Source: Bacillota bacterium (GTDB taxonomy: Bacteria > Bacillota > Dethiobacteria > DTU022 > PWGO01). From it: a stretch of DNA of 34,216 nt. The position numbers were made by a program, and so were the translations under genes. Of the stretch, positions 1-34,216 are shown piece after piece. A model generated the notes under the pieces. The model had not been told where the DNA came from. It was given only the letters and a program-made list of their open reading frames with translations, and did not search any database. Each line of letters opens with the position of its first letter. Within the stretch, counting starts at the first letter, position 1. The stretch covers positions 1-34,216 of the forward strand of contig JAAYSV010000038.1 in NCBI GenBank assembly GCA_012518215.1, read 5' to 3'.

Positions 1-42
1 ATATTTTCGCATACCCACAAAAGATAGCTAAAACCGCCTGAT

Positions 43-253
43 GAATCCCCTCCTCGTACACACCTTACCATTGCTATAAACTGGTTCCTAGGTTTCAGTC
101 TTTTCCCCGTACGGATATGTTGGCGTCAGCGACATAGAGTGAATGGTTGCCATAGCCGGTGAAGGCGAGGAAGCGAAACGGGACTGCCGACGTGATGTGG
201 ACAGTGCATTGCCTGTCCATTCTGAGAGAGCCCTGTTTTTTGGGGCGACCGAA
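43..253 (+). repeat. Alpha repeat unit, copy 1
   Basis: This is a 211-bp unit from one GAATCCCC to the next. It matches 20161-20369 on the same strand and 8719-8927 on the opposite strand at most positions. Landmarks are CTGGTTCCTAGG, CCCCGTACGGATATGTTGGC and a small hairpin-like GCCC-TGTTTTTTG-GGGC close to the 3' end. Confidence 0.85.
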
Positions 254-462
254 GAATCCCCTTCTCATACATACCCCACCACCGCTATAAGCTGTTTCCT
301 GTTTTCCCCTGGCCAAGTCGCCCAGCCAACATAAAAAAAAAGAATAAGAAAAAGTGGGCGGCCAAGAAAATCCTCATCGATACCACTTACTCACGGAGGG
401 AAACTGATTCCTGGGTTTTATCTTTTCGCTTACTCACAAAAAGATAGCTGCAGCCGCTTGAA
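254..462 (+). repeat. Beta repeat unit, copy 1
   Basis: This 209-bp unit shares its first ~50 bp with alpha (GAATCCCC head, ATAAGCTG-TTCCTG) and then diverges into a run containing CCAAGTCGCC, CCAACATA plus an A-rich stretch, and GGGAAACTGATTCCT. It matches 20370-20577. Confidence 0.8.
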
Positions 463-511
463 GAATCCCCTCCTCGAACACCACTTAACACCCCCAGAAG
501 AAAAAGTACAA

Positions 512-628
512 CCTGTCAGATTCCTCGCGGCGCTATTTTTTCACTCCGGTGTTATCGTTTCTACATCATTTTTCTCTGTAGATTCATGTTGGTGTTCTTG
601 TTAAACACCGCTTGCTCGGAATGACAGG
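512..628 (+). repeat. Gamma repeat unit, MITE-like, copy 1
   Basis: This 117-bp unit begins CCTGTCAGATTCC and ends GGAATGACAGG. The ends are therefore inverted copies (CCTGTC-ATTCC) apart from an AG insertion. It is the reverse complement of 9018-9130 over most of its length, including CTCGCGGCGCTATTTTTT and GTTCTTGTTAAAC. No open frame of note lies inside. Confidence 0.8.
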
Positions 629-963
629 GGGGGAAGAGAGAGCCTCAGTCAACTGAAGAATCCCCTCCTCGAACAAACCCTACTACCGGCATAAACCGGT
701 TCCCGTTTAATCTTTCCCGTCCCCGATATGTTGGTGGAAGAAAAGCATTCACCGACAAAAAAAAGAGATTCTTTGCCGCACCCGTAATGACAATAGGGGG
801 GCCATGTATTGGCGCAAGCAAAATTTGAAAATTCCATGCAGTTTCAGGGAATTGAAGGGAATCAAATTTTCATGTCGAAATCAATAGGGCAGGGCGCTCA
901 TTAATAATGCCCATTAAAAATTTATGATTCAATCAATTTCAAATAATTTAAGGAGATGATAAA

Positions 964-3900
964 ATGTCGCGCTTCAAAAATTTGATGATGATTTCCCTGG
1001 TGGCCTTGCTGGTACTCTGTTTTTCGGGAGTATCCGAAGTAGTATTTGCTGTTGATGGTGATGATGCAACGGAAACGTATTTCGGAGATGTCAATGCGGA
1101 TGATGACATAAATGTCAGCGATGCCATAGCCGTTCTCAGGCATATCGTGAGCCTGGCCCCGTTTGATAAAGAAGAACTGAAAGACAATGAGGCCTGGCAG
1201 AGAGCGGATGTAAATCTGGATGGTGATGTCGATGTCTCCGATGCCATCATGATCTTGAGATACATAGTTGGTCTGATCAAAGAGTTTGGACCTGCGGGAT
1301 CCACAGCGACGGTTCATACGGAGACGGCTTTCCTCCATGCTCTGGATTTCGATCATGTGAAAACCGTCAAACTGGGTCGGGATATTACCCCCGCTAAAAA
1401 TCTGGAGATAGAACGAAATCTGACACTGGACGGGGATGACCATGCCCTTCGGGGGGAAGTTGTTGTGGGTTCGGAAGTCACAAGTTTTACGGCCGAAAAT
1501 ATCGAAATCGATACCCTGACCCTCAACGGCGGCGGAACCGATTCCGTGAACCTGATGGGTGCCGTTATCAACATTCTTAACGTCAATGTCGATGTTAGTA
1601 TCGAGATTGATAAAGACAGTACTATCACACAAATATGGGTAGCCAAAGGAGCCGCCCCCTCTTTTGGCGGGGAAGGATTGCCCGATGATATTGATATCTA
1701 TTATGTGGTAACCTTTGTTGTAAAGGACAGTAGAGATAATACCCCTGTGCCGGGAGCCGAAATCGATGTAAGAATTTTTGTAGACGGTGAGGCAGAAGAG
1801 GTGACGACACTTACCACCGACAATAATGGAGTCGCCGAGGACCATTTCGTCGAGGGCCAGTACGATTATTTTGTAACCCCCCCCGTTGATAAAAATTTAA
1901 GAGACAAGAAAGCGCCATTTCAAGTAATTGGTGAGGAAAAAGTAGTAGAGGTTGATTTGCAACCTGCGTTTGGAGATCCTGAATATTTGGAAATAATCGT
2001 TCATCCTTCGGAGACCGTGGCCGGCGAAGCCATTGACCCTGCTCCCGCGGTGCAGGTCTGTGACGAGTTCGGCAACTCCGTAGAAGAAGCGGGTATAGAG
2101 GTGACGGTAACCCTGGACGGGGGCGATTTTGCCTCCGGTAGCGATACGGAGACAACTGTTACTGATACTAACGGCAAGGCTGAATTCAACGATCTGGTGA
2201 TCGAGAAAGCCGACACCGGCTACGAACTTACCTTCAGTGCGGAAGATCTCGATGATGCCGTCTCGGAACCGTTCGATGTAATCGCTGCCGGTATTGATGG
2301 TGATGAGTCATCGGTCGAACTCATTTCCGACGAAACGGTGGAGGCCGGCGAAGACAATATTGAACTTCTACTTGCCCTGAAAGATGAGTACGATAATCCC
2401 ATCAGCGGCACTTTTCATGTCGTGATCGGGGGAAGTATGCCGTTCTGGGAAGAGGATGTTGAGTTTTCGGCAGATGGTGAAGCTACAGTATTCTCGGAAT
2501 GGCTCTATACGTGTACTGCTTATTTTCCGGTTGAAGTTGGAGGAATAGGAATCGGCGGTTTTGACGTTACCGTTGTTGCCGCTGCGCCGGCAAGTTTTGC
2601 TCTTGACGTCGATTTTGACGACGCGGAAGACCTGACATTTGCTTTCACCGGCTTCAAGGATAGATTTGGAAACAGGATCGATGACCCGGATATAGACCCG
2701 GAGGAATCAAACATCACGCTGGTGGCGAACGATGAGAGCCTTGATATTTCCGTTTCGCTGGCTGATCTGCCTGATTTTGCTGTTGATGGGGGAACGATGA
2801 CCGTAACCGTGGAGGCGGGGGATATCCTTTCCCTGGCCGGCGGGGCAGGTTATTTTGATGGGCTCGATCTGAATGTTCATACTACGGTGGATACAGAACT
2901 ATCCGGTGATGGATGGGAGATCATGCTATCGGATATTGCGGATCTGCCGGAATTCCCCGTTGAGGATCTGAATGATTTCTTCGTGGCCATGGTGGATGAC
3001 GACCTGCTTCCGCTTGAAGATGCCATGGACAATGATATAAATCTGCTGCAGCTGTATTGGGATGGGCAGCCGCGCAACTTTTACAATGCCTGTGCTGCTT
3101 ACGATGCAGCCAACGGTATCTATGAGGTACTGGAAAGGGTAGTTCTGGAGGATACGCTCGAAACACAGCGCGAATATCTTGAGTGGGTTGGAGACTCTCT
3201 GCAAGCCGTGGAAGGCATGCTCGCTCAAGAATATCGTATAATCGAAGCTCGAAAAGCGGTCATGCCTCATGAGGGTGGGGAGGTAACTCCCGTTACCATA
3301 TCTGCGGCCAGAGATGAAATCGCCGCTTTTGAAGATGCCTACGGCGATTTGCAGATAAACGCGGCTACCGACGAGCACCGCGATGGGATCATCAACGATA
3401 CCAAAGAACAGGTTAGTTTTCAGATGAACGTCTCCTTCGGCGTCATCGGTGCATCGGGGGTGGAACCCGGTGGTTTTCACATCGAGGCTCCATGGCTGGA
3501 CGACACCGGCGATAAAGTTGATCATTTCAACATATCCAATTTTCATCCTTTCCATGTTTTATCAGGGGATCCCCCTGATGATGTAAATCTTGAATGGGAT
3601 GGAGACGAGGAAGCATATTACTTGCGCGCCCTGTTCGATGAAGGAACACCGGGAACGGGAAGAATAGAGGTCTGGCTGCAGGCTGCCGGAGCGGCGGATG
3701 AACTTGCCCGTTACTTCGAGGTGGACAGGGAAATACAGTTGCAAGGCAGTTACGATCCTTCCGGGAAGATCACCATGGGCCCGCTGCCTCTGGAGAAATG
3801 CCCGGTAGATGGAGCCCGGAATGTCAGGGTGGATAGCGAGATAAAGGTAACTTATGATATGCGCATAAATTTTGTAACAGACGGCAGCGGGATCATGATG

Positions 3901-6900
3901 GAATATTTTGATCCCGTTACGGATAACTGGGAGCCGATGACGGTAACCGGCCTTATCAACAACGAGGTTCTGTTCATAGAACCTCATGAAGGGTTGGATT
4001 TTGGCACGGATTATCGTGTGCTGATCCCGTATGGTACGGTAGAAAGCGCGGAGACAGAGCTCCCATCCACCCAGGAAGTTTCCTGGGGTTTCAGCACCGA
4101 GATGGCCATGGATATCGATCCGCTGGAGATTTATGTGCGTTCATTTGAAGACGGAGGCCCTGGGGATGTTGAATTCAATCAGACTTTCACGTTGACGCTC
4201 AATTGCGGGGATTTCAATGAGGAACTTTCCGAAAGCGATTTTGCACTGGGCGGCATCTTTGCTGAATGGGGCGATGCGTCGCTGGACATTGCATCTGCAG
4301 AACGTGACCAGGAAGATGCCAATCTGGCTCGGGTGACGGTGGAAGGATACCTCAATATACGTCCCGAAGAATGGGGCGGGTTTGATTGGGATGATGACGG
4401 TCATTATGCCACGGGCACGATCATCGCCCTGGCAAGCGGACATGATTATGACGACGGTGATGTTTCGGCCGCGGTTGCTCTGCGAGAGGAACTCGACCCG
4501 ATCTGGATCAATCCGGGACATCTGCACGTCCCCGTTTACGATGAGAGTGGGCCCGATGTTGCGATCAACGAACAATTCAGGGTGGGTCTTGGTTTCGGAA
4601 CCTTTGTTGAAAACCTGGATGAAAGTGATTTTGCACTGGGCGGCATCTTCGCCGATGGCGAGGGTTACGCCGCGTTGCAGGTGGAGAATGTCAAGATCGA
4701 TATCGTCAACCCCTCCGTGGCCTCGTTCACCCTCACCGGGACACTGAACATCAGCGAGGAACAGTGGCATCAGTTCTGGGATCAATGGCATCAGGACCCC
4801 GTGGGCACCATCACCCTGCTGGCTTCCGGCCACAGCGGCGATGAAGATCTCATTGCCAGCGTCTGGGTCTCTCAGCCGCCTGACCCGCTGCGTGCGCATC
4901 CCGATCGTATCTTTGTTCCCGTATATGACGGCGAAAACGATGTTTCCATCGACGAAACCTTTGAACTGGAACTGGGAGATGGGGAATTCAATGATCAAAT
5001 CGGGCCGGCGGATCTTTCTTTGGGAGGCATCTTCACCGACGGGAGTTACGATGCGGATCTGGCAATCGACTCCGTGGACATCATCGAACCCCACCGCCTC
5101 TCGTTCACCCTCAGCGGGACACTGAACATCAGCGAGGAACAGTGGCATCAGTTCTGGGGCCAGTGGCATCAGGACCCCGAGGGTACCATCACGTTATCGC
5201 CTTCGGGCTATACCGGTGATGCCCCCCTCACTGCCCGCATCTGGGTCTCTCCGCCGCCTGACCCGCTGCGTGCGCATCCGGATCATATCTTTGTTCCCGT
5301 ATATGACGGCGAAAACGATGTATCCATCGATGAAACCTTTGAACTGGAACTGGGAGATGGGGAATTCGATAGCCAGGTCGGGCCGGAGGATCTTTCTTTG
5401 GGCGGCATCTTCACCGACGGGAGTTACGATGCGGATCTGGCAATCGGCTCCGTGGACATCATCGAACCCTATCGCCTCTCGTTCACCCTCAGCGGGACAC
5501 TGAACATCAGTCAGGAACAGTGGTATGAGCTGTGGAATCAATGGCATCAGGACCCCGAGGGCACCATCACCCTGCTGGCTTCCGGCCACAGCGGCGATGA
5601 AGATCTCACCGCCCGCGTCCGGGTCTCTCCGCCGCCTGACCCGCTGCGTGCAAATCCCGATCGTATCTTTGTTCCCGTATATGACGGCGAAAACGATGTT
5701 TTCATCGACGAAACCTTTGAACTGGAACTGGGAGATGGGGAATTCGATAGCCAGGTCGGGCCGGAGGATCTTTCTTTGGGCGGTATCTTCGCCGATGGCG
5801 AGGGTTACGATGCGGATCTGGAAATCGGCTCCGTGAACATCATCGACCCCTATCGCCTCTCGTTCACCCTCAGCGGGAAACTGAACATCAGCGAGGAACA
5901 GTGGCATGAGCTCTGGGATCAATTGCATCAAGACCCCGAGGGCACTATCACCCTGCTGGCTTCCGGCCACAGCGGCGACGAAGATCTCACTGCCAGCGTC
6001 TGGGTCTCTCCGCCGCCTGACCCGCTGCGTGCGTTTGACGACCATATTTGGGTAGATGTCTATGATGGTGAAAACGACGTGTTCTTCAATAGAACCTTTG
6101 AACTGGAGCTGGGATATAGTGAATTCGATGATCTTCAGCTGACGGACATTTTGCTTGGCGGTGTGTTCGAGGGTCTTGATGTAAAAGAAATCATACCCGA
6201 TCATGATCCGAGCCGTGTCCGGGTTGTTATTGAAGGAAACCTCAATATCAGCCAAGATGAATGGCTGGATCACTGGGGTTCAGGCGGAAAGAAATACAAG
6301 GTTGCTACTGTAACCGTGGTTGCCGACGGGCATACGGGCGAAGGTGATCTTCTTGCCGAAATCCGTGTATTCTCGCAAGATCTGGATCGCCCGGCTTTCA
6401 GCGTTAATCCGGTGGAAAACCGGATCTGGGGGCATAACTGGCTACCCAATGAGACGCTTGACATCAGAATTGGCCCCGAGAATGAACCACAATATCAGGA
6501 AACCTTGAACACCGACGACTGGGGTTTCTTCCACCTGGATGATGAGGGATTGGATATCGAAGTCGGGGATATTGTTACCATTACCGGTACGAAAATAACG
6601 AAAGTTCATGTGGTGACTGCCCTGGAAGTTGATCTGGTGGATGTCGATAACGACATCATTTCCGGCACCGCCGCACCGGGCATTATCGTGCGTGTGGACA
6701 TCTATGCCGAAGAGGGGCCCGGTTCCAGCCGTATGGTCATCGCTGATGAGGAAGGCAACTGGGTTGCTGACTTTTCGCAAGATGTCGGAGAAGAGCCCTG
6801 GGATAGAGCCCATGATATTGAGCCCGGAGACCGGGGCAGTGTTTGCCAACCCGATGAAGATGATGATTGTACCTGCATCGATTGGTTCGTGCCGGATCCG

Positions 6901-7965
6901 TTCCTGGAGGTAACCATCAACCATGGCCCGATCGAAGGCCGTGATTGGCCTGCCAACACCGAGATCAACGTGATCATAACCGACGAAGAGGAAAATGAAA
7001 AATTCAAGAACGATTACGAGACTGACAACCATGGTAATTTTCATATAGGACAATGGGATCTGGAAGGAGTGGAGATCTTACCCGGTTACACGATAACCGC
7101 TGAAGGCGGCGGCTGCAGGGTGGAGTTCGAGACCTCCTTCATCGAAGTAACCGATCCCAACGTGGAAGATGACACGATATCTGGCCAGGCCGGACCCGGG
7201 GAATGGGTGGAGGTCATTGTCTTTGTTGATGATCGGCCCTTTCACGAATATCCACGTCGCAACGTGCAGGCGAACCAGAATGGTGACTGGCTGGCCGACT
7301 TCTCCGTCAGGGAGGGAGAGGGCGATGAATTGTGGGCAGAACCCTTTGACCTTGAAGAGGGGGATGATGGCTGTGCAGTGTTGAGGGATGAAGACCGGAA
7401 CGCGACTATATTCAACTGGTGGATTCCCAGCCCGTTCCTCGAGGTAACCATCAACCATGCCCAGATCAAAGGTCATGATTGGCCTGCCTACACCGAGATC
7501 AACGTGATCATAACCGACGGTGAGGAAAATGAAATATACGAAAATGTTTTCGAGACTGGCGACGGTGGTGATTTTGAATTAAAAGCCGGGGATCTGGAAG
7601 AAGTGGAGATCTTACCCGGTTACACGATAACCGCTGAAGGTGGCGGCTGCAGGGTGGAGTACGAGATCTCCTTCATCGAAGTAACCGATACCGACGTGGA
7701 AGATGACACGATATCTGGCAAGGCTGGACCCGGGGAATGGGTGGAGGTCATTGTCTTTGTTGGAGAGCGGCCCTTTCACGAATTTCCACGTCGCAACGTG
7801 CAGGCGAACCAGAATGGTGACTGGCTGGCCAACTTCTCCGTCAGCGGGGGAGAGGGCGGTGAAGTGTGGGCAGAGCCCTTCGACCTTGAAGAGGGGAATC
7901 ATGGCATTGCATTGTTGATAGATGAAAAACGTAACATGACTGTATTCCACTGGGAGGCCCATTAG
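964..7965 (+). CDS. Giant secreted dockerin-bearing modular surface protein (2333 aa)
   Basis: This is probably an extracellular adhesin or structural protein. The ATG follows AAGGAG at 950-955. A signal peptide (hydrophobic residues ~7-28, cleavage about VFA-29) precedes a type I dockerin-like pair with two calcium loops, DVNADDDINVSD (42-53) and DVNLDGDVDVSD (82-93). Next come a short beta-helix-like module (~115-230), Ig/invasin-like regions (~240-560) with VxVCDEFGN and TDTNGKAEF motifs, a helical stretch (~640-800) and a Big_5/SbsA-like Ig domain (~935-1045, CPVDGARNVRVDS). Six tandem modules (1052-1806) and three C-terminal modules (~1809-2333) complete the protein. It is strongly acidic. 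There is no SLH domain, LPXTG motif or catalytic domain, so how it attaches is unknown, and no cohesin gene lies in the window to receive the dockerin. It is a single-gene unit flanked by inverted repeat arrays. The function is inferred from architecture only. Confidence 0.9.
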   Translation: MSRFKNLMMISLVALLVLCFSGVSEVVFAVDGDDATETYFGDVNADDDINVSDAIAVLRHIVSLAPFDKEELKDNEAWQRADVNLDGDVDVSDAIMILRYIVGLIKEFGPAGSTATVHTETAFLHALDFDHVKTVKLGRDITPAKNLEIERNLTLDGDDHALRGEVVVGSEVTSFTAENIEIDTLTLNGGGTDSVNLMGAVINILNVNVDVSIEIDKDSTITQIWVAKGAAPSFGGEGLPDDIDIYYVVTFVVKDSRDNTPVPGAEIDVRIFVDGEAEEVTTLTTDNNGVAEDHFVEGQYDYFVTPPVDKNLRDKKAPFQVIGEEKVVEVDLQPAFGDPEYLEIIVHPSETVAGEAIDPAPAVQVCDEFGNSVEEAGIEVTVTLDGGDFASGSDTETTVTDTNGKAEFNDLVIEKADTGYELTFSAEDLDDAVSEPFDVIAAGIDGDESSVELISDETVEAGEDNIELLLALKDEYDNPISGTFHVVIGGSMPFWEEDVEFSADGEATVFSEWLYTCTAYFPVEVGGIGIGGFDVTVVAAAPASFALDVDFDDAEDLTFAFTGFKDRFGNRIDDPDIDPEESNITLVANDESLDISVSLADLPDFAVDGGTMTVTVEAGDILSLAGGAGYFDGLDLNVHTTVDTELSGDGWEIMLSDIADLPEFPVEDLNDFFVAMVDDDLLPLEDAMDNDINLLQLYWDGQPRNFYNACAAYDAANGIYEVLERVVLEDTLETQREYLEWVGDSLQAVEGMLAQEYRIIEARKAVMPHEGGEVTPVTISAARDEIAAFEDAYGDLQINAATDEHRDGIINDTKEQVSFQMNVSFGVIGASGVEPGGFHIEAPWLDDTGDKVDHFNISNFHPFHVLSGDPPDDVNLEWDGDEEAYYLRALFDEGTPGTGRIEVWLQAAGAADELARYFEVDREIQLQGSYDPSGKITMGPLPLEKCPVDGARNVRVDSEIKVTYDMRINFVTDGSGIMMEYFDPVTDNWEPMTVTGLINNEVLFIEPHEGLDFGTDYRVLIPYGTVESAETELPSTQEVSWGFSTEMAMDIDPLEIYVRSFEDGGPGDVEFNQTFTLTLNCGDFNEELSESDFALGGIFAEWGDASLDIASAERDQEDANLARVTVEGYLNIRPEEWGGFDWDDDGHYATGTIIALASGHDYDDGDVSAAVALREELDPIWINPGHLHVPVYDESGPDVAINEQFRVGLGFGTFVENLDESDFALGGIFADGEGYAALQVENVKIDIVNPSVASFTLTGTLNISEEQWHQFWDQWHQDPVGTITLLASGHSGDEDLIASVWVSQPPDPLRAHPDRIFVPVYDGENDVSIDETFELELGDGEFNDQIGPADLSLGGIFTDGSYDADLAIDSVDIIEPHRLSFTLSGTLNISEEQWHQFWGQWHQDPEGTITLSPSGYTGDAPLTARIWVSPPPDPLRAHPDHIFVPVYDGENDVSIDETFELELGDGEFDSQVGPEDLSLGGIFTDGSYDADLAIGSVDIIEPYRLSFTLSGTLNISQEQWYELWNQWHQDPEGTITLLASGHSGDEDLTARVRVSPPPDPLRANPDRIFVPVYDGENDVFIDETFELELGDGEFDSQVGPEDLSLGGIFADGEGYDADLEIGSVNIIDPYRLSFTLSGKLNISEEQWHELWDQLHQDPEGTITLLASGHSGDEDLTASVWVSPPPDPLRAFDDHIWVDVYDGENDVFFNRTFELELGYSEFDDLQLTDILLGGVFEGLDVKEIIPDHDPSRVRVVIEGNLNISQDEWLDHWGSGGKKYKVATVTVVADGHTGEGDLLAEIRVFSQDLDRPAFSVNPVENRIWGHNWLPNETLDIRIGPENEPQYQETLNTDDWGFFHLDDEGLDIEVGDIVTITGTKITKVHVVTALEVDLVDVDNDIISGTAAPGIIVRVDIYAEEGPGSSRMVIADEEGNWVADFSQDVGEEPWDRAHDIEPGDRGSVCQPDEDDDCTCIDWFVPDPFLEVTINHGPIEGRDWPANTEINVIITDEEENEKFKNDYETDNHGNFHIGQWDLEGVEILPGYTITAEGGGCRVEFETSFIEVTDPNVEDDTISGQAGPGEWVEVIVFVDDRPFHEYPRRNVQANQNGDWLADFSVREGEGDELWAEPFDLEEGDDGCAVLRDEDRNATIFNWWIPSPFLEVTINHAQIKGHDWPAYTEINVIITDGEENEIYENVFETGDGGDFELKAGDLEEVEILPGYTITAEGGGCRVEYEISFIEVTDTDVEDDTISGKAGPGEWVEVIVFVGERPFHEFPRRNVQANQNGDWLANFSVSGGEGGEVWAEPFDLEEGNHGIALLIDEKRNMTVFHWEAH
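4117..6381 (+). repeat. Six tandem ~126-residue coding repeats
   Basis: These lie within the giant surface protein. Modules begin at 4117, 4495, 4882, 5260, 5638 and 6019 and are 126, 129, 126, 126, 127 and 121 residues long. Each carries a DPLRAxPD..FVPVYDGENDV opening, a LSLGGIF centre, LNISEEQW and a GTITLLASGHSGDEDL ending. Modules 3, 4 and 5 are nearly identical even at DNA level, for example the stretch around 4915-4990 compared with 5293-5368 and 5671-5746. The outer modules 1 and 6 have diverged. I do not recognise the domain; an Ig-like beta-sandwich is a guess. Confidence 0.85.
6388..7962 (+). repeat. Three C-terminal ~170-178-residue coding repeats
   Basis: Module 1 is about 6388-6891, module 2 6892-7425 and module 3 7426-7962. 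Modules 2 and 3 share LEVTINH, TEINVIITD, ILPGYTITAEGGGCRVE, FIEVTD, QANQNGDWLA and EPFDLEEG and are close at DNA level. Module 1 is more distant. Each seems to hold two Ig-like halves, the second with an ISGxAxPG motif as in bacterial Ig domains of adhesins. Each ends with a short aromatic link (WFVPDPF, WWIPSPF, FHWEAH). Confidence 0.75.
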
Positions 7966-8105: not shown

Positions 8106-8361
8106 CCTGTGTTACTCTGCAACGACCCCTTCTTGAAGTTTCATATTCCTTCAGACCGGCCCTCGGCATCATCATGTCCATGCCGCTGACGCCAACATAT
8201 CGGTACGGGGAAAGATAGAAGCCTAGGAACCAGTTTATGGCGATGGTAAGGTGTTTACGAGAAGGGGATTCTTCGGTCGCCCTGAAAAACAGGGCTCCCT
8301 CAGAATGACAGGTAGTACTGCATCTTTTCCCTACGATGGGTAATGAGGAATGCTTTTACGT

Positions 8362-8473
8362 TGTCATTCAGAGCAAGCGGTGTTTTGCGTTATGCAGGCG
8401 TTGGGTTTCGGGTAAACGGTTGCAAGAATGCCGGCCCCCAGTTGGCAAGGATAGCGTAGCGTGGAATCTCGGG
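8362..8473 (-). repeat. Gamma repeat unit, copy 2
   Basis: This unit has a TGTCATTCAGAGCAAGCGG left end and an AGCGTAGCGTGGAATCTCGGG-type right end, and is 112 bp long. The interior differs from the other copies more than the ends do. Confidence 0.7.
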
Positions 8474-8550
8474 CGATAGGGAAGCGTTGTGCTTGCCCGT
8501 GACGGTGCTGACATTGCAACATTTTACTCCAGCCGTCAGGGCTTTTACGT

Positions 8551-8664
8551 TGTCATTCAGAGCAAGCGGTGTTCTGCAAGTATGAAGGCGTTATGTTCGG
8601 GGGATGGTGATGCAGAAACGCGGGACTTTTTCGGTGGGCATAGCGCAGCGTGGAATCTGACAGG
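8551..8664 (-). repeat. Gamma repeat unit, copy 3
   Basis: This 114-bp unit runs from TGTCATTCAGAGCAAGCGG to GGAATCTGACAGG. The right end is the exact complement of the CCTGTCAGATTCC end at 512. Confidence 0.75.
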
Positions 8665-8718
8665 TAGGGCGTTTTCTTTCTCTGGCAGCAGGGTAAGGAG
8701 TATATGAGGAGGGGATTC

Positions 8719-8927
8719 TTCGGTCGCCCCAAAAGCAGGGCTCCCTCAGAATGGACAGGCAATGCACTGTCACATCACGTCGGCAGTCCCGTTTCGCTTC
8801 CTCGCCTTCACCGGCTATGGCAACCACTCACTCCATGTCGCTGACGCCAACATATCCGTACGGGGAAAAGACAGAAGCCTAGGAACCAGTTTATGGCGAT
8901 GGTAAGGTGTTTACGAGAAGGGGATTT
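8719..8927 (-). repeat. Alpha repeat unit, copy 2 (complete)
   Basis: This unit spans 209 bp between two GGGGATT(C/T) heads at 8711 and 8920, and is the reverse complement of 43-253 and 20161-20369. The next alpha begins at once, so the units sit head to tail. Confidence 0.85.
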
Positions 8928-9017
8928 TTCGGTCGCCCTGAAGAACAGGGCTCCCTCAGAATGACAGGTAGTACTGCATCTTTTCCCTACGATGGGTAAT
9001 GAGGAATGCTTTTACGT

Positions 9018-9130
9018 TGTCATTCAGAGCAAGCGGCGTTTAACAAGAACACCAACATGAAGCTATAGAGAATAATGATGTAGAAACGGTAACACCGGAA
9101 TAAAAAAATAGCGCCGCGAGGAATCTCGGG
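9018..9130 (-). repeat. Gamma repeat unit, copy 4
   Basis: This 113-bp unit is the reverse complement of 512-628 including the interior (GTTTAACAAGAACACCAACATGAA and the AATAGCGCCGCGAGG end), so these two are the closest gamma pair in the window. Confidence 0.8.
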
Positions 9131-9217
9131 CAAGGGCAAACATGTCGGGTAGCAGCCTGCTTGTTATTTTTGCTTTTATAAAGGATTATCAGCCCCAAAA
9201 TAGAATAATGAAGGTAA

Positions 9218-9280: not shown

Positions 9281-12265
9281 GTGAAATATAATATCGGTAA
9301 AATAGCCCTGATGTTGCTTGTTATCCTGCTGTTTTGCGGGCAGGGCGCTATTGCAGGAGCGGCGTCCACAGATAGCTGCCTCTCGCCGACGGAAGGGGGG
9401 GAAACAATTCCTCACGACAACCCCCCGGTTTATTTCGGAGATTTGAATAACAATGGCCGTATCGAGATACAGGATGCCGTAATGATCTTGCGACATATAG
9501 TTAAATTATATCTTCAGGATGACCAGGATTTTTTACAGAGGGCGGATGTAAATCTTGATGGGGTTATAAATGTCAGGGATGCGATCATGGTTTTGCGGAT
9601 GGCGGCAAATTTGATCCCGGATTTTATCCCGGTTGATCCGGCCCTCGTCTCGACGGAGATGGCACTCCGCCAGGTAGTGGAAAGAACGACTGTAAAAGAA
9701 ATCAATATAAACGGCCGGATCATTCTGGGTGAAAGCCTGTTGGTTGAACGGGGTGTTGCCATCGGCACCCTGCTCGTCAATGTCAACCCCGATGGAGGCG
9801 GCGGGGTGAAAATCTCGGGGACGCTCGGCGAACCGGGCAGTGTTTTCAATCTTGTATCCATTCCGGCGCAACGCTACATGTTTACCGGGTGGACTTCGGG
9901 GCAGGAATTTATCAGCATGGAAAAAAGCATCGACTTCACGATGCCGGCAGAGGATACGGAGATCACCGCCCATTTTTTGCTGCTCACTTACAATCTGGGG
10001 GCATCCTCTTCGCCACCGGAAGGCGGAGCGGTCGAGGGATGTGGACGGTATGAAGAAGGGGCGACACCCACCCTGAAGGCATTGCCTGCCGAAGGTTTTG
10101 TTTTTATCGGGTGGGCCGTGGAGGAAGAAATAATATCCAGGGATGCAACGATGGAATACACCATGCCCGCCGGGGATGTTCATTTTGTGGCCGTCTTTTT
10201 TCCGGAACATCTTGTACCCGTGGCATCCGCCGGGGAGCTTGATCAGATCCGTGAAAGGGGGCCCGGGATCTTCGGTGCCGGTACCATCTATGAAGGTGAA
10301 TATGAAGGCGGCCTGGACAAGCATTACCTGCAGTGTGCCGACATAGATCTGGGGATGGCACCCTACAATGAAGGAGATGGTTGGGAACCCATCGGCGGCT
10401 TCTATGATGAACACTATCAGGAGTTCACCCATCCCTTCACGGGTTCCTATCACGGCAACGGATACAGGATCAAGAACCTGACGATTGACAATGACGATGA
10501 GGGGGTCGCCGGATTGTTCGGCTATGTTGCTTCCGATTCTGTTCTGACGGAGATCATCCTCGAGGACGTGGATGTAAACGGGGGCCTGGCCGCCGCTGCT
10601 CTGGCCGGGTACAACAAAGGCAAGATCAGCAACTGTCATGCCGCGGGGCAGATTTCGGGTCTGATCAAAGTAGGCGGCCTGGTGGGCTACAATGCTTCCG
10701 ATGGGGAGATAGACGCCAGCCATGTCGAGGCTTCCGTGCGGCAATCATGGGCAGGGGATCCCGGGGAATTTGAAGCCGAGATGTATGGAACCGGCGGCCT
10801 TGTTGGTTCAAATGAAGGTGCCATCAACGACAGTTCTGCCGATGGTGAAGTTGTTGCCCCGATATTTGTGGGCGGCCTGGTGGGTTACAATGAAGGGTGG
10901 ATCGGGGACAGTTCCTCCTCTGCTACAGTTGCCGAAATAGACACCGACAATTGTTTTGTTCTTACCGGAGCCGGCGGCCTGGCCGGGGCTAACAGTGGAA
11001 CCATTTTGAGGAGCCATGCCCGCGGCACGGAGATCAGCGGTTACAAGATGGTCGGCGGCCTGGTGGGTGTAAACGTTGGCAGTATCAACGCCTGCCATGC
11101 CGGTTTTGAATCTGCGGAAAACGGCATGACCAGGGTCACGGGAGTTCACGATGTCGGTGGCCTGGTCGGTGCCAATCTGGGTTTTGGCGGGATTGTACGG
11201 CGCTGTTATGCTACCGCGGAGGTCATCGGCACCGATAATACCTTTGAATTCCTGAATAACCTGCTGAACCCGGGGGAAATAATTTTTGACGGGAGCGTGG
11301 AATCCCTTCCTGTCATCGCACCCCAGGGGCTTTATGATGGGCAATACCTGGACATTCCCGGTGTCGGTGGCCTGGCCGGCCTGGTTATCGGTGGCCAGGT
11401 TTCCGATTACAGTTATGCTGAAGGACTCGTGACCGGTGGTGTGATCGCCGGTGGGCTTGTGGGATCGAATATCAATGGTGACATTGCAGACTGCTGGAGC
11501 CATGCTGATGTCCACGGCCCGTATTATGTAGGGGGGTTCGCGGGGATCCATTGGTTCAGCGAGATCTACTGCAGCAGTGCATCGGGCCGAGTGGTGGGAA
11601 CCGATCCGCAGATCCCGTTGAACTATGATGATTATCCCCCCGAGCTGGCCATGATGCTGGGAGGCCGTGCCGGTGGTTTTGTCGCCGGCAACATCGGCGA
11701 AATTTCCTGTAGCTCCGCGCAAGGTGAAGTCCGCGGGTACGAGGTTGTCGGTGGCATGGTTGCCATCAATATCGGCAGTATAGAGGAGTGTTTTTCCTGT
11801 GGAGATGTGACAAATACGGACTGTGAAACCGAAGGTTACTTCGCGGCAACGGGCGGGCTTGTGGGGGTGAATGGCAATAATGTCGCTGACAGTTACTCTT
11901 TCAGCCACGTCGAAGGGGACAGCACAACCGGCGGCCTGATAGGTCACCATTTCATGGGGACGGTTGAAAATTGCTATGCTGCCGGAGCGGTGGAAGGCCT
12001 TGAAAATCTGGGCGGGCTCATCGGCCTGGCGGAGGATTCGGGAGAGAGTGTGGAAAACAGTTACTATGACCGGGATACAACCGGGCTGGAGATTTCAGCC
12101 GGCGGGGAGGGGCGTTCCACTGTAGAGATGACCCCCCCCTACCCCTACGATCCGGAAGAGATTTACCCCGGATGGGATTTTATCTCCATCTGGGATAACG
12201 ATCCTGCCCGGAATGGCGGTTATCCGTTCCTCCGTTGTTCCGAAATGATTCCCGATTTTCTTTGA
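9281..12265 (+). CDS. Secreted dockerin-bearing GLUG-motif surface protein (994 aa)
   Basis: This is a predicted cell-surface or secreted adhesin-like protein. The GTG start follows GGAGGG at 9267-9272. A signal peptide (hydrophobic ~8-25) is followed by a dockerin-like pair with loops at 54-65 (DLNNNGRIEIQD) and 89-100 (DVNLDGVINVRD). A short module (~115-165) resembles the one after the dockerin of the giant surface protein. Two InlB B-repeat-like domains come next (~166-304, FTGW and FTMPAEDTEITAHF motifs). From ~385 to the end there is a long run of about fourteen GLUG-type motifs (VGGLVGYN, AGGLAGAN, TGGLVGVN) expected to form a right-handed beta-helix-like stack. It closes with the WDFISIWDND..GYPFLR tail usual in GLUG proteins. 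There is no anchor motif. Its own terminator follows, so it is probably monocistronic. The binding target is unknown. Confidence 0.9.
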   Translation: MKYNIGKIALMLLVILLFCGQGAIAGAASTDSCLSPTEGGETIPHDNPPVYFGDLNNNGRIEIQDAVMILRHIVKLYLQDDQDFLQRADVNLDGVINVRDAIMVLRMAANLIPDFIPVDPALVSTEMALRQVVERTTVKEININGRIILGESLLVERGVAIGTLLVNVNPDGGGGVKISGTLGEPGSVFNLVSIPAQRYMFTGWTSGQEFISMEKSIDFTMPAEDTEITAHFLLLTYNLGASSSPPEGGAVEGCGRYEEGATPTLKALPAEGFVFIGWAVEEEIISRDATMEYTMPAGDVHFVAVFFPEHLVPVASAGELDQIRERGPGIFGAGTIYEGEYEGGLDKHYLQCADIDLGMAPYNEGDGWEPIGGFYDEHYQEFTHPFTGSYHGNGYRIKNLTIDNDDEGVAGLFGYVASDSVLTEIILEDVDVNGGLAAAALAGYNKGKISNCHAAGQISGLIKVGGLVGYNASDGEIDASHVEASVRQSWAGDPGEFEAEMYGTGGLVGSNEGAINDSSADGEVVAPIFVGGLVGYNEGWIGDSSSSATVAEIDTDNCFVLTGAGGLAGANSGTILRSHARGTEISGYKMVGGLVGVNVGSINACHAGFESAENGMTRVTGVHDVGGLVGANLGFGGIVRRCYATAEVIGTDNTFEFLNNLLNPGEIIFDGSVESLPVIAPQGLYDGQYLDIPGVGGLAGLVIGGQVSDYSYAEGLVTGGVIAGGLVGSNINGDIADCWSHADVHGPYYVGGFAGIHWFSEIYCSSASGRVVGTDPQIPLNYDDYPPELAMMLGGRAGGFVAGNIGEISCSSAQGEVRGYEVVGGMVAINIGSIEECFSCGDVTNTDCETEGYFAATGGLVGVNGNNVADSYSFSHVEGDSTTGGLIGHHFMGTVENCYAAGAVEGLENLGGLIGLAEDSGESVENSYYDRDTTGLEISAGGEGRSTVEMTPPYPYDPEEIYPGWDFISIWDNDPARNGGYPFLRCSEMIPDFL

Positions 12266-19909: not shown

Positions 19910-20021
19910 TCCTGTTTTCCTTCGTTGGAACAAGACATTTTCACCCTCAGCATTGCCATAATCACCGGAGAAACTCACGCTACATCACTAGCGCATTCGT
20001 AAAGCGCACTGTATTCCATCG

Positions 20022-20135
20022 CCCGAGATTCCTCGCGGCGCTATCCTTACCGACCAGGGGGCGATTTTCCTGCTAGCATTGTATAACAGCATAACGCCTG
20101 CGAACTGCAAAAGACCGCTTGCTCGGAATGACAGG
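20022..20135 (+). repeat. Gamma repeat unit, copy 5
   Basis: This 114-bp unit runs from CCCGAGATTCCTCGCGGCGC to GGAATGACAGG. The interior GCATTGTATAACAGCATAA matches, inverted, the interior of the gamma copy at 33813-33923. Confidence 0.8.
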
Positions 20136-20160
20136 GGGGAGGTCGCCGCAGGCGAGCGAA

Positions 20161-20369
20161 GAATCCCCTCCTCGTAAACACTTTACCATCGCCATAAACT
20201 GGTTCCTAGGCTTCTGTTTTTCCCCCGTACGGATATGTTGGCGTCAGCGACATGGAGTGAATGGCTGCCATAGCCGGTGAAGGCGAGGAAGCGAAACGGG
20301 ATTGCCGACGTGATGTGACAGTGTAGTACCTGTCATTCTGAGGGAGCCCTGTTTTTTGGGGCGACCGAA
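20161..20369 (+). repeat. Alpha repeat unit, copy 3 (complete)
   Basis: This is an exact 209-bp unit between two GAATCCCCTCCTCGTA heads and the best-preserved + strand copy. It is followed directly by beta. Confidence 0.85.
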
Positions 20370-20577
20370 GAATCCCCTCCTCGTACATACCCCACCACTG
20401 CCATAAGCTGGTTCCTGTTTTCCCCTGGCCAAGTCGCCAAGCCAACATATAAAAAAAGAAAAAGCAAACGTAGGCGGTCGAGAAAACCCTTGTTAATACC
20501 ACTTACTCAGGGGAGGGAAACTGATTCCTAGGTTTTATATTTTCGCATACCCACAAAAGAGAGCTTCAGTTCCTGAA
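20370..20577 (+). repeat. Beta repeat unit, copy 2
   Basis: This 208-bp unit matches 254-462 along its length, including the CCCCTGGCCAAGTCGCC and GGGAAACTGATTCCT landmarks. Confidence 0.8.
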
Positions 20578-20783
20578 GAATCCCCTCCTCGTATACACCT
20601 TACCATCGCCATAAACTGGTTCCTGGCTTTTATCTTTTCCCCGTACAGGTATATTGACGGCAGCGGCACAGAGTAAGCACCCATGAACGGCCCGGTCGCC
20701 AAGCCAACATATAAAAAATATTTTATCTTTTCCCGGTACGGCATATCGGCAAAAGCGGATGGCAGCTTGAAGGGTTTTTGATC

Positions 20784-33642: not shown

Positions 33643-33812
33643 TGTGCAGAACGTATTTTGGGGGGCGTTGTTGTCCCGGTCGGCAGGCGCAATAGCCCTG
33701 GCGGAACCCGATGCCCCGGCGGTAATCAGGCATGTGCTCATTGAGACAATTGTTTCGTAGGAGAAAGTGAGTGGTCAAGATTCTTCAGCGCCTGCGGCGA
33801 CCTCTCCCCCTC

Positions 33813-33923
33813 CCTGTCATTCCGAGCAGGTGTTCTGCATTACACAGGCATCATGCTGTTATACAAAGCTTGCAGGGACGCCGCCCCTGGTCGGTGGGAA
33901 AGCGCAGCGTGGAATCTGACAGG
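33813..33923 (-). repeat. Gamma repeat unit, copy 6
   Basis: This 111-bp unit runs from CCTGTCATTCC to GGAATCTGACAGG, giving the clearest example of near-perfect inverted ends (CCTGTC-ATTCC with an AG insertion on one side). Confidence 0.8.
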
Positions 33924-34216
33924 TAATACACTGTCGCATCACGTCGGCAGTCCCGTTTCGCTTCCTCGCCTTCACCGGCTATGGCAACCATTCACTCTAT
34001 GTCGCTTACGCCAACATATCCGTACGGGAAAAAGACAGAAGCCCAGGAACCAGTTTATGGCGATGGTAAGGTGTGTACGAGGAGGGGATTCTTCGGTCGC
34101 CCCAAAAAACAGGGCTCCCTCAGAATGACAGGTACTACACTGTCACATCACGTCGGCAGTCCCGTTTCGCTTCCTCGCCTTCACCGGCTATGGCAACCAT
34201 TCACTCTATGTCGCTG
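33813..34216 (-). repeat. Fourth intergenic repeat array, running off the window end
   Basis: In minus orientation, gamma at 33813-33923 joins directly to an alpha end, with an alpha head at 34084-34091 and a further alpha from 34092 to the window end. The TGACAGG landmarks at 33917 and 34126 are 209 bp apart, the alpha period. Confidence 0.85.

What the first reader, a model, noticed from the sequence alone, without database searches (positions are those of the whole stretch)
1..750. A modular family of intergenic repeats (alpha 209 bp, beta 208 bp, gamma ~113 bp) fills four gaps
The same three units recur at 1-750, 8172-9130, 20022-20760 and 33813-34216. Alpha and beta have almost the same length and share a ~50-bp head starting GAATCCCCTCCTCG, but have unrelated tails. 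They sit head to tail with no spacer, and the phase of 209 bp is exact at three separate loci (20161, 8711-8920, 33917-34126). Long conserved interiors suggest selection or very recent spread, perhaps as a structured RNA, a protein-binding array or a non-autonomous element. The simple palindromic-repeat classes I know do not have this composite build.
Basis: partly seen in the sequence, partly recalled or inferred. Interest (0 to 1): 0.65.

Follow-up and report, generated by a model that had tools for sequence, protein, structure and literature searches.

The report
Polar mosaic arrays of palindromic repeats
The gaps hold pieces of a roughly 70-locus family of one-directional mosaics, built in one uncultured Bacillota genome from two kinds of palindrome and about a dozen spacers; it is a new, unusually ordered variant of the BIME/NIME repeat mosaics known from E. 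coli and Neisseria, not a new class of gene or RNA.

Summary
The repeats are real. The window is one whole contig of a 2.14 Mb Bacillota MAG. The family fills 69 intergenic clusters (about 42 kb, 2% of the genome), and 44 of 122 contig ends lie in it. Alpha and beta are not the natural units. "209 bp" is one hairpin plus a 165-bp spacer.

Polarity is absolute: in all 44 clusters holding both, I and II are inverted relative to each other, and orientations are never mixed. Type I stems show compensatory change here and in other Bacillota. Type II shows none. A 58-bp block (K) stays 97-99% identical while the start of the same spacers has drifted to 78-83%.

This is the build of BIMEs and Neisseria NIMEs. 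Type I resembles the published CGTC/TGTC-tagged REP superfamily, not reported there from Firmicutes. No RAYT-type or reverse-transcriptase gene was found. Both partial IS110 transposase copies abut arrays. Most likely these are REP mosaics that grow by recombination and serve as IS110 landing pads. New variant of a known kind.

The parts
1..743 (+). array 1 (cut by the contig start): spacer end, e>, P-G-K spacer, I>, P-Q-Z spacer, e>, <II, e>
8148..9143 (-). array 2: <II, I>, P-G-K spacer, I>, <II, <II, I> in array direction
19955..20718 (+). array 3: <II, e>, P-G-K spacer, I>, P-Q-Z spacer, e>
33779..34216 (-). array 4 (cut by the contig end): K, I>, P-G-K spacer, <II
214..258 (+). type I hairpin
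   Evidence: alignment A2
8267..8310 (-). type I hairpin
8714..8757 (-). type I hairpin
8923..8966 (-). type I hairpin
20331..20374 (+). type I hairpin; RNA fold -18.7 kcal/mol, z -3.2
34087..34130 (-). type I hairpin
8362..8469 (+). type II element
8551..8658 (+). type II element
20026..20133 (-). type II element
33815..33917 (+). type II element, shortened (103 bp)
140..197 (+). K block in the P-G-K spacer
   Evidence: sequence; conservation
8773..8830 (-). K block
   Evidence: sequence
20258..20315 (+). K block
   Evidence: sequence
33937..33994 (-). K block
   Evidence: sequence
34146..34203 (-). K block
   Evidence: sequence
259..459 (+).
20375..20574 (+).

Best explanation
The repeats are bacterial intergenic mosaics of the BIME/NIME kind. 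They are built from TGTC-tagged palindromes resembling the CGTC-REP superfamily (type I), a second palindrome-ended element always inverted to it (type II), and about a dozen spacer families that each keep their own slot and length. SHOWN: copy number, polarity, spacer grammar, compensatory change in the type I stem, near-invariance of the K spacer block, no RAYT-type or reverse-transcriptase gene found in the assembly, and IS110 copies abutting arrays. INFERRED: the arrays grow and homogenise by in-register duplication, unequal recombination and gene conversion among arrays of like polarity, not by independent hairpin insertion. The hairpin is kept at the DNA level as a foldable target site. 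The K block is a binding site for a host DNA protein, as inter-REP segments of E. coli BIMEs are for IHF and gyrase. IS110-family RNA-guided transposases use the arrays as landing pads.
For: Copy number: 88 BLAST matches to alpha+beta; 69 clusters, 42.5 kb, between genes. Polarity: 44 of 44 clusters with I and II have them inverted; 0 of 27 with two or more I and 0 of 22 with two or more II are mixed; 1 match in 189 kb outside arrays; totals I> 97, <I 0, <II 81, II> 0. Grammar: about 12 spacer families of narrow length and fixed slot. Structure: type I has 93.7% of cells paired against 50% or less when slid, and 65 double-change cells against 26 in shuffles; in other Bacillota the C/T-G/A pair is only T-A (37) or C-G (4), and free inner stems average 2.05 pairs against 0.64 shuffled. 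K: 97-99% pairwise identity against 78-83% in the first 60 bp of the same spacers. No Y1_Tnp, no RVT_1. IS110 copies at C40 and C8, both next to arrays. Published CGTC REPs: tag CGTC/TGTC, A and T at the first stem pairs, no dedicated transposase, clustered in Neisseria (PMC3733652). REPs as targets of IS110-type elements: PMC1525189, PMC11187229. BIMEs: alternating REPs, IHF and gyrase binding (PMC2817692).
Against: Type II shows no covariation, so half of the family is tied to the palindrome class only by its ends. Relatedness of copies inflates shuffle-based covariation; the main double change (CCC/GGG versus CGG/CCG) could be one or few events, though pairs in other genomes support it independently. 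Classical REPs lie mainly in tandem and convergent gaps (PMC3733652); here 8-9 of 23 resolvable gaps are divergent (from; open-reading-frame calls are crude). The K block has no demonstrated ligand. Two IS110 copies are a small sample.
Confidence: 0.75

Rival explanations
1. The arrays are non-autonomous mobile elements mobilised in trans by a transposase: RAYT/IS200-type, or the IS110-type enzyme acting on the hairpin.
For: High copy number, genome-restricted spread (0 of 70 other genomes of the order have type II), hairpins like transposase substrates, IS110 copies beside arrays.
Against: No Y1 transposase found. Orientation is never mixed within a cluster, which random insertion would not give. 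No target-site duplication or empty site could be shown.
Confidence: 0.15
2. The arrays encode structured non-coding RNAs or transcription attenuators/terminators for adjacent genes.
For: Type I is a strong hairpin (z -3.2) with compensatory changes; 53 of 60 type I and 64 of 81 type II fold better on the TGTC-first strand.
Against: The better-folding strand alternates along an array because I and II are inverted. Arrays lie in tandem, convergent and divergent gaps. No Rfam match. No covariation in type II.
Confidence: 0.06
3. K and its flank are the remains of a captured protein gene (read backwards: ADITSAVPFRFLAFTGYGNHSLYVADANIS), so the arrays are partly pseudogene debris.
For: The reverse frame is open through K in all copies.
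Against: No Pfam match and no convincing homologue in 39 relatives (best E 0.067). Most of the variation in that frame is amino-acid changing. Two frames are open at once in K-long.
Confidence: 0.03

Closest known systems
Neisserial intergenic mosaic elements (NIME: RS modules flanked by dRS3, a CGTC-1 REP)
   Same: Intergenic mosaics of a short palindrome (ATTCCC(N)8GGGAAT) with 50-150 bp repeat modules; clustered; IS110 elements in the same genomes and both tied to rearrangements (PMC9778887).
   Different: Different sequence. Here there are two palindrome types in strict inversion, about 12 slotted spacer families of 22-204 bp, and a near-invariant block.
CGTC-tagged REP superfamily (Di Nocera et al. 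2013, PMC3733652)
   Same: TGTC tag (a listed variant of CGTC), A and T at the first stem pairs, variable complementary stems, no dedicated transposase, opposite-orientation neighbours.
   Different: Not reported from Firmicutes there. Type I stem is interrupted by conserved GA/GA mismatches and is longer; tail is CCC/CTC, not CCA. Type II has a roughly 75-80 bp interior.
E. coli BIME (BIME-1, BIME-2)
   Same: Palindromic units in alternating orientation with conserved inter-unit motifs (PMC2817692).
   Different: E. coli REPs are GTAG-tagged and RAYT-linked; here the tag is TGTC and no RAYT was found; units and spacers are longer; divergent gaps are occupied.

Membership tests
CGTC-tagged REP superfamily | Terminal CGTC (or TGTC/CCTC) tag beside the stem | tested here: met
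   TGTC in nearly all of 60 distinct type I sequences; TGTC variant listed in PMC3733652. The collecting pattern favoured TGTC with mismatches allowed
CGTC-tagged REP superfamily | Complementary A/T at stem positions 1 and 2 | tested here: met
   A-U 59/60 and U-A 58/59
CGTC-tagged REP superfamily | 8-9 bp stem, 4-5 base loop, tail mostly CCA | tested here: not met
   12 pairs broken by two GA/GA steps, loop mostly 7-8, tail CCC or CTC. Hence filed as a variant resembling this superfamily, not as a member of its four families
CGTC-tagged REP superfamily | No dedicated transposase | tested here: met
   No Y1_Tnp; IS110 present but not shown to be dedicated
BIME (GTAG REP plus RAYT) | Alternating orientation of palindromic units with conserved inter-unit motifs | tested here: met
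BIME (GTAG REP plus RAYT) | GTAG tag and cognate RAYT gene | tested here: not met
   Tag is TGTC; PF01797 search of the own genome gave no match
BIME (GTAG REP plus RAYT) | Binding of IHF, gyrase or Pol I | not testable with these tools
   needs biochemistry
NIME | Flanking 20-bp dRS3 palindrome ATTCCC(N)8GGGAAT | tested here: not met
   Core is ATTCY-GA...GA-RGAAT, not ATTCCC...GGGAAT
MITE | Terminal inverted repeats and target-site duplication around one unit | tested here: inconclusive
   Ends of types I and II are inverted repeats; no empty site or duplication could be found, as no relative in the order carries the arrays

The most novel reading that the evidence does not exclude
IS110-family RNA-guided transposases are the long-missing partner of CGTC/TGTC-tagged REPs: the bridge RNA recognises the TGTCATTC hairpin, and repeated insertion, excision and recombination there build the polar mosaics. 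Hints: both partial IS110 copies lie within 91 bp of an array (roughly 7% expected for a random gene, by my own estimate of 138 array flanks over about 2000 genes), one copy runs into an array at the AATGACA half-site, and IS110 and CGTC REPs also coexist in Neisseria.
Probability: 0.1. Interest if true: 0.7.

Novelty: new variant of a known kind. Interest (0 to 1): 0.38.

Why it matters
Di Nocera et al. (2013) left open what mobilises CGTC-tagged REPs, and reported none from Firmicutes. This genome adds Bacillota, shows absolute polarity of the array (which argues against independent insertion of hairpins), and isolates a near-invariant spacer block that is a good bait for a binding protein. 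It also warns that such arrays break short-read assemblies: 44 of 122 contig ends lie in them.

Tried and rejected
Rfam at gathering and relaxed thresholds: none. RAYT (18) and reverse transcriptase (45): none. Exact K-block scan of GTDB contigs (22) and IMG/VR (27), distant BLAST of alpha+beta against plasmids and phages (28, 29): none; records of this genome may be left out of those collections. Alpha in 39 relatives: one marginal 33-bp hit (12). Protein reading of K: rejected (40-42). A long palindrome joining the alpha and beta arms: significant only in the K-long form (score 36 against 19, sd 3.5), not in the alpha-I-beta form (28 against 22.6, sd 3.9), so it does not explain why alpha and beta have equal length. 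Covariation in type II: none (56). Flanking genes by function (49): diverse, no surface-protein enrichment. Literature search for the core sequence: nothing relevant. I did not build a covariance model: the strict pattern searches and the pair counts answered the same question.

Full report
WHAT WAS CHECKED. The four repeat-filled gaps are present. The window is an entire contig, G000:C38, of a 2,144,754-base, 61-contig MAG, so gaps 1 and 4 are truncated by the assembly. The nearest glycosyltransferase relatives are Desulfotomaculaceae, Clostridia and other Bacillota MAGs, so the host is placed in Bacillota only.

COPY NUMBER. The alpha+beta sequence has 88 BLAST matches in this genome, and a stretch holding type II and spacers has 72. 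In the stretches fetched I find 69 clusters of 0.1-1.7 kb, 42.5 kb in all, about 2% of the genome and between genes. By my count from that table, 44 of 122 contig ends fall in them. The copy number is therefore a lower bound.

THE REAL UNITS. Alpha and beta dissolve into hairpins and spacers. Type I is 43-45 bp (36-37 in a short form): TGTCATTCYGAG..stem-loop..GCGACCGARGAATC. Spacers fall into about 12 families with narrow lengths, each bound to a slot. Alpha is a type I hairpin end plus a 165-bp spacer (P-G-K); beta is a hairpin end plus a 200-bp spacer (P-Q-Z) that ends in a degenerate hairpin. The 209 phase is 44+165 and is 211 in gap 1.

POLARITY. In array direction there are 97 type I forward and 0 reversed, 81 type II reversed and 0 forward. 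Cluster by cluster, 44 of 44 with both types obey the inversion, and none of 27 (two or more I) or 22 (two or more II) is mixed; one match occurs outside arrays in 189 kb. This is the strongest new observation. It argues that arrays grow from within rather than by random insertion of hairpins (inference).

STRUCTURE. On 60 distinct type I sequences aligned by MAFFT, the hairpin is paired in 93.7% of cells, against at most 50.2% when slid. There are 65 cells with changes on both sides against 26.1 in shuffles. Most of them come from two subfamilies (CCC/GGG and CGG/CCG), so events are fewer than cells. Independent support: among 41 distinct hairpins from other genomes of the order and phylum, where the search pattern left both letters free, the closing pair is always T-A (37) or C-G (4), and inner stems average 2.05 pairs against 0.64 in shuffles. 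The stem is broken at fixed places by GA facing GA. Such steps usually form sheared G-A pairs; that is from general knowledge, not tested here. Type II has invariant ends and no covariation.

K BLOCK. In 19 P-G-K spacers the 20-base windows over K have mean pairwise identity 0.97-0.99; the first 60 bases of the same spacers have 0.78-0.83. K is therefore constrained or locally converted; the data cannot separate these. At about ten places, nearly all contig ends, K continues into a longer form, GTCGGCAGCCGGATACTTCACAGGACGTGAAG..., whose right arm pairs back on the G-K arm. In the usual form the tip of that palindrome is replaced by a type I hairpin. REPs sitting inside longer palindromes are described in PMC3733652. 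The reverse strand of K reads as an open frame, but homology and substitution pattern speak against a protein.

DISTRIBUTION. The type I pattern occurs in 9 of 71 genomes of the order and 21 of 398 sampled in the phylum, with at most 10 copies in the others against 72 here. Type II occurs in no other genome of the order. Both same-family genomes lack both. The elaboration is thus restricted to this lineage, on a widely scattered core.

MOBILITY. No Y1 transposase and no reverse transcriptase were found in a 97%-complete assembly. An IS110 RNA-guided transposase is present in two partial copies that stop at the same point at contig ends, as a collapsed multicopy element would. On C40 the array starts about 91 bp after the gene and the junction reads ...CATAGCAATGACAGTACTGG, which keeps the AATGACA half-site. 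On C8 a decayed copy lies 55 bp from an array. Two of two is suggestive, not proof.

CONTEXT. Of 23 gaps with a gene on each side, about 10 are tandem, 4 convergent and 8-9 divergent (from; crude gene calls). Classical REPs are mainly in tandem and convergent gaps (PMC3733652). Flanking gene families are diverse.

VERDICT. These are REP-type intergenic mosaics, working like BIMEs and NIMEs. Type I meets the tag and first-pair features of CGTC REPs but not the published stem, loop and tail dimensions, so it is filed as a new variant. Function beyond genome plasticity and IS landing is inference.

Noticed in passing
window 964-7965 and 9281-12265: Two large proteins with dockerin domains (one with Ig-like domains, one with GLUG and InlB-B repeats) flank array 2; the first has internal 378-bp tandem repeats (4699-6135) and a 534-bp pair (6898/7432).
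   Followed up: no
L200 (G000:C40) 739-1617 and L090 (G000:C8) 3-440: IS110 RNA-guided transposase fragments cut at the same base, so the 5' half and the likely guide-RNA end are missing from the bin.
   Followed up: partly
L071 (G034:C100): A relative carries the plain TGTCATTCTGAGCGAAGCGAAGAATC palindrome twice, 313 bp apart, amid other scattered repeats (GTAGGGGCGGG..., TAAATCCCCC...).
   Followed up: no
K-long: L066 3138-3260, L062 1-130: The longer form of K carries two perfect hairpins (CTGCCGAC/GTCGGCAG and CTTCAC/GTGAAG) side by side at its tip and is nearly identical in all copies.
   Followed up: partly
type II alignment A3, columns 9 and 106: In type II a C-to-A change at column 9 goes largely with an A-to-T change at column 106, splitting subfamilies; pairing logic unclear.
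   Followed up: no
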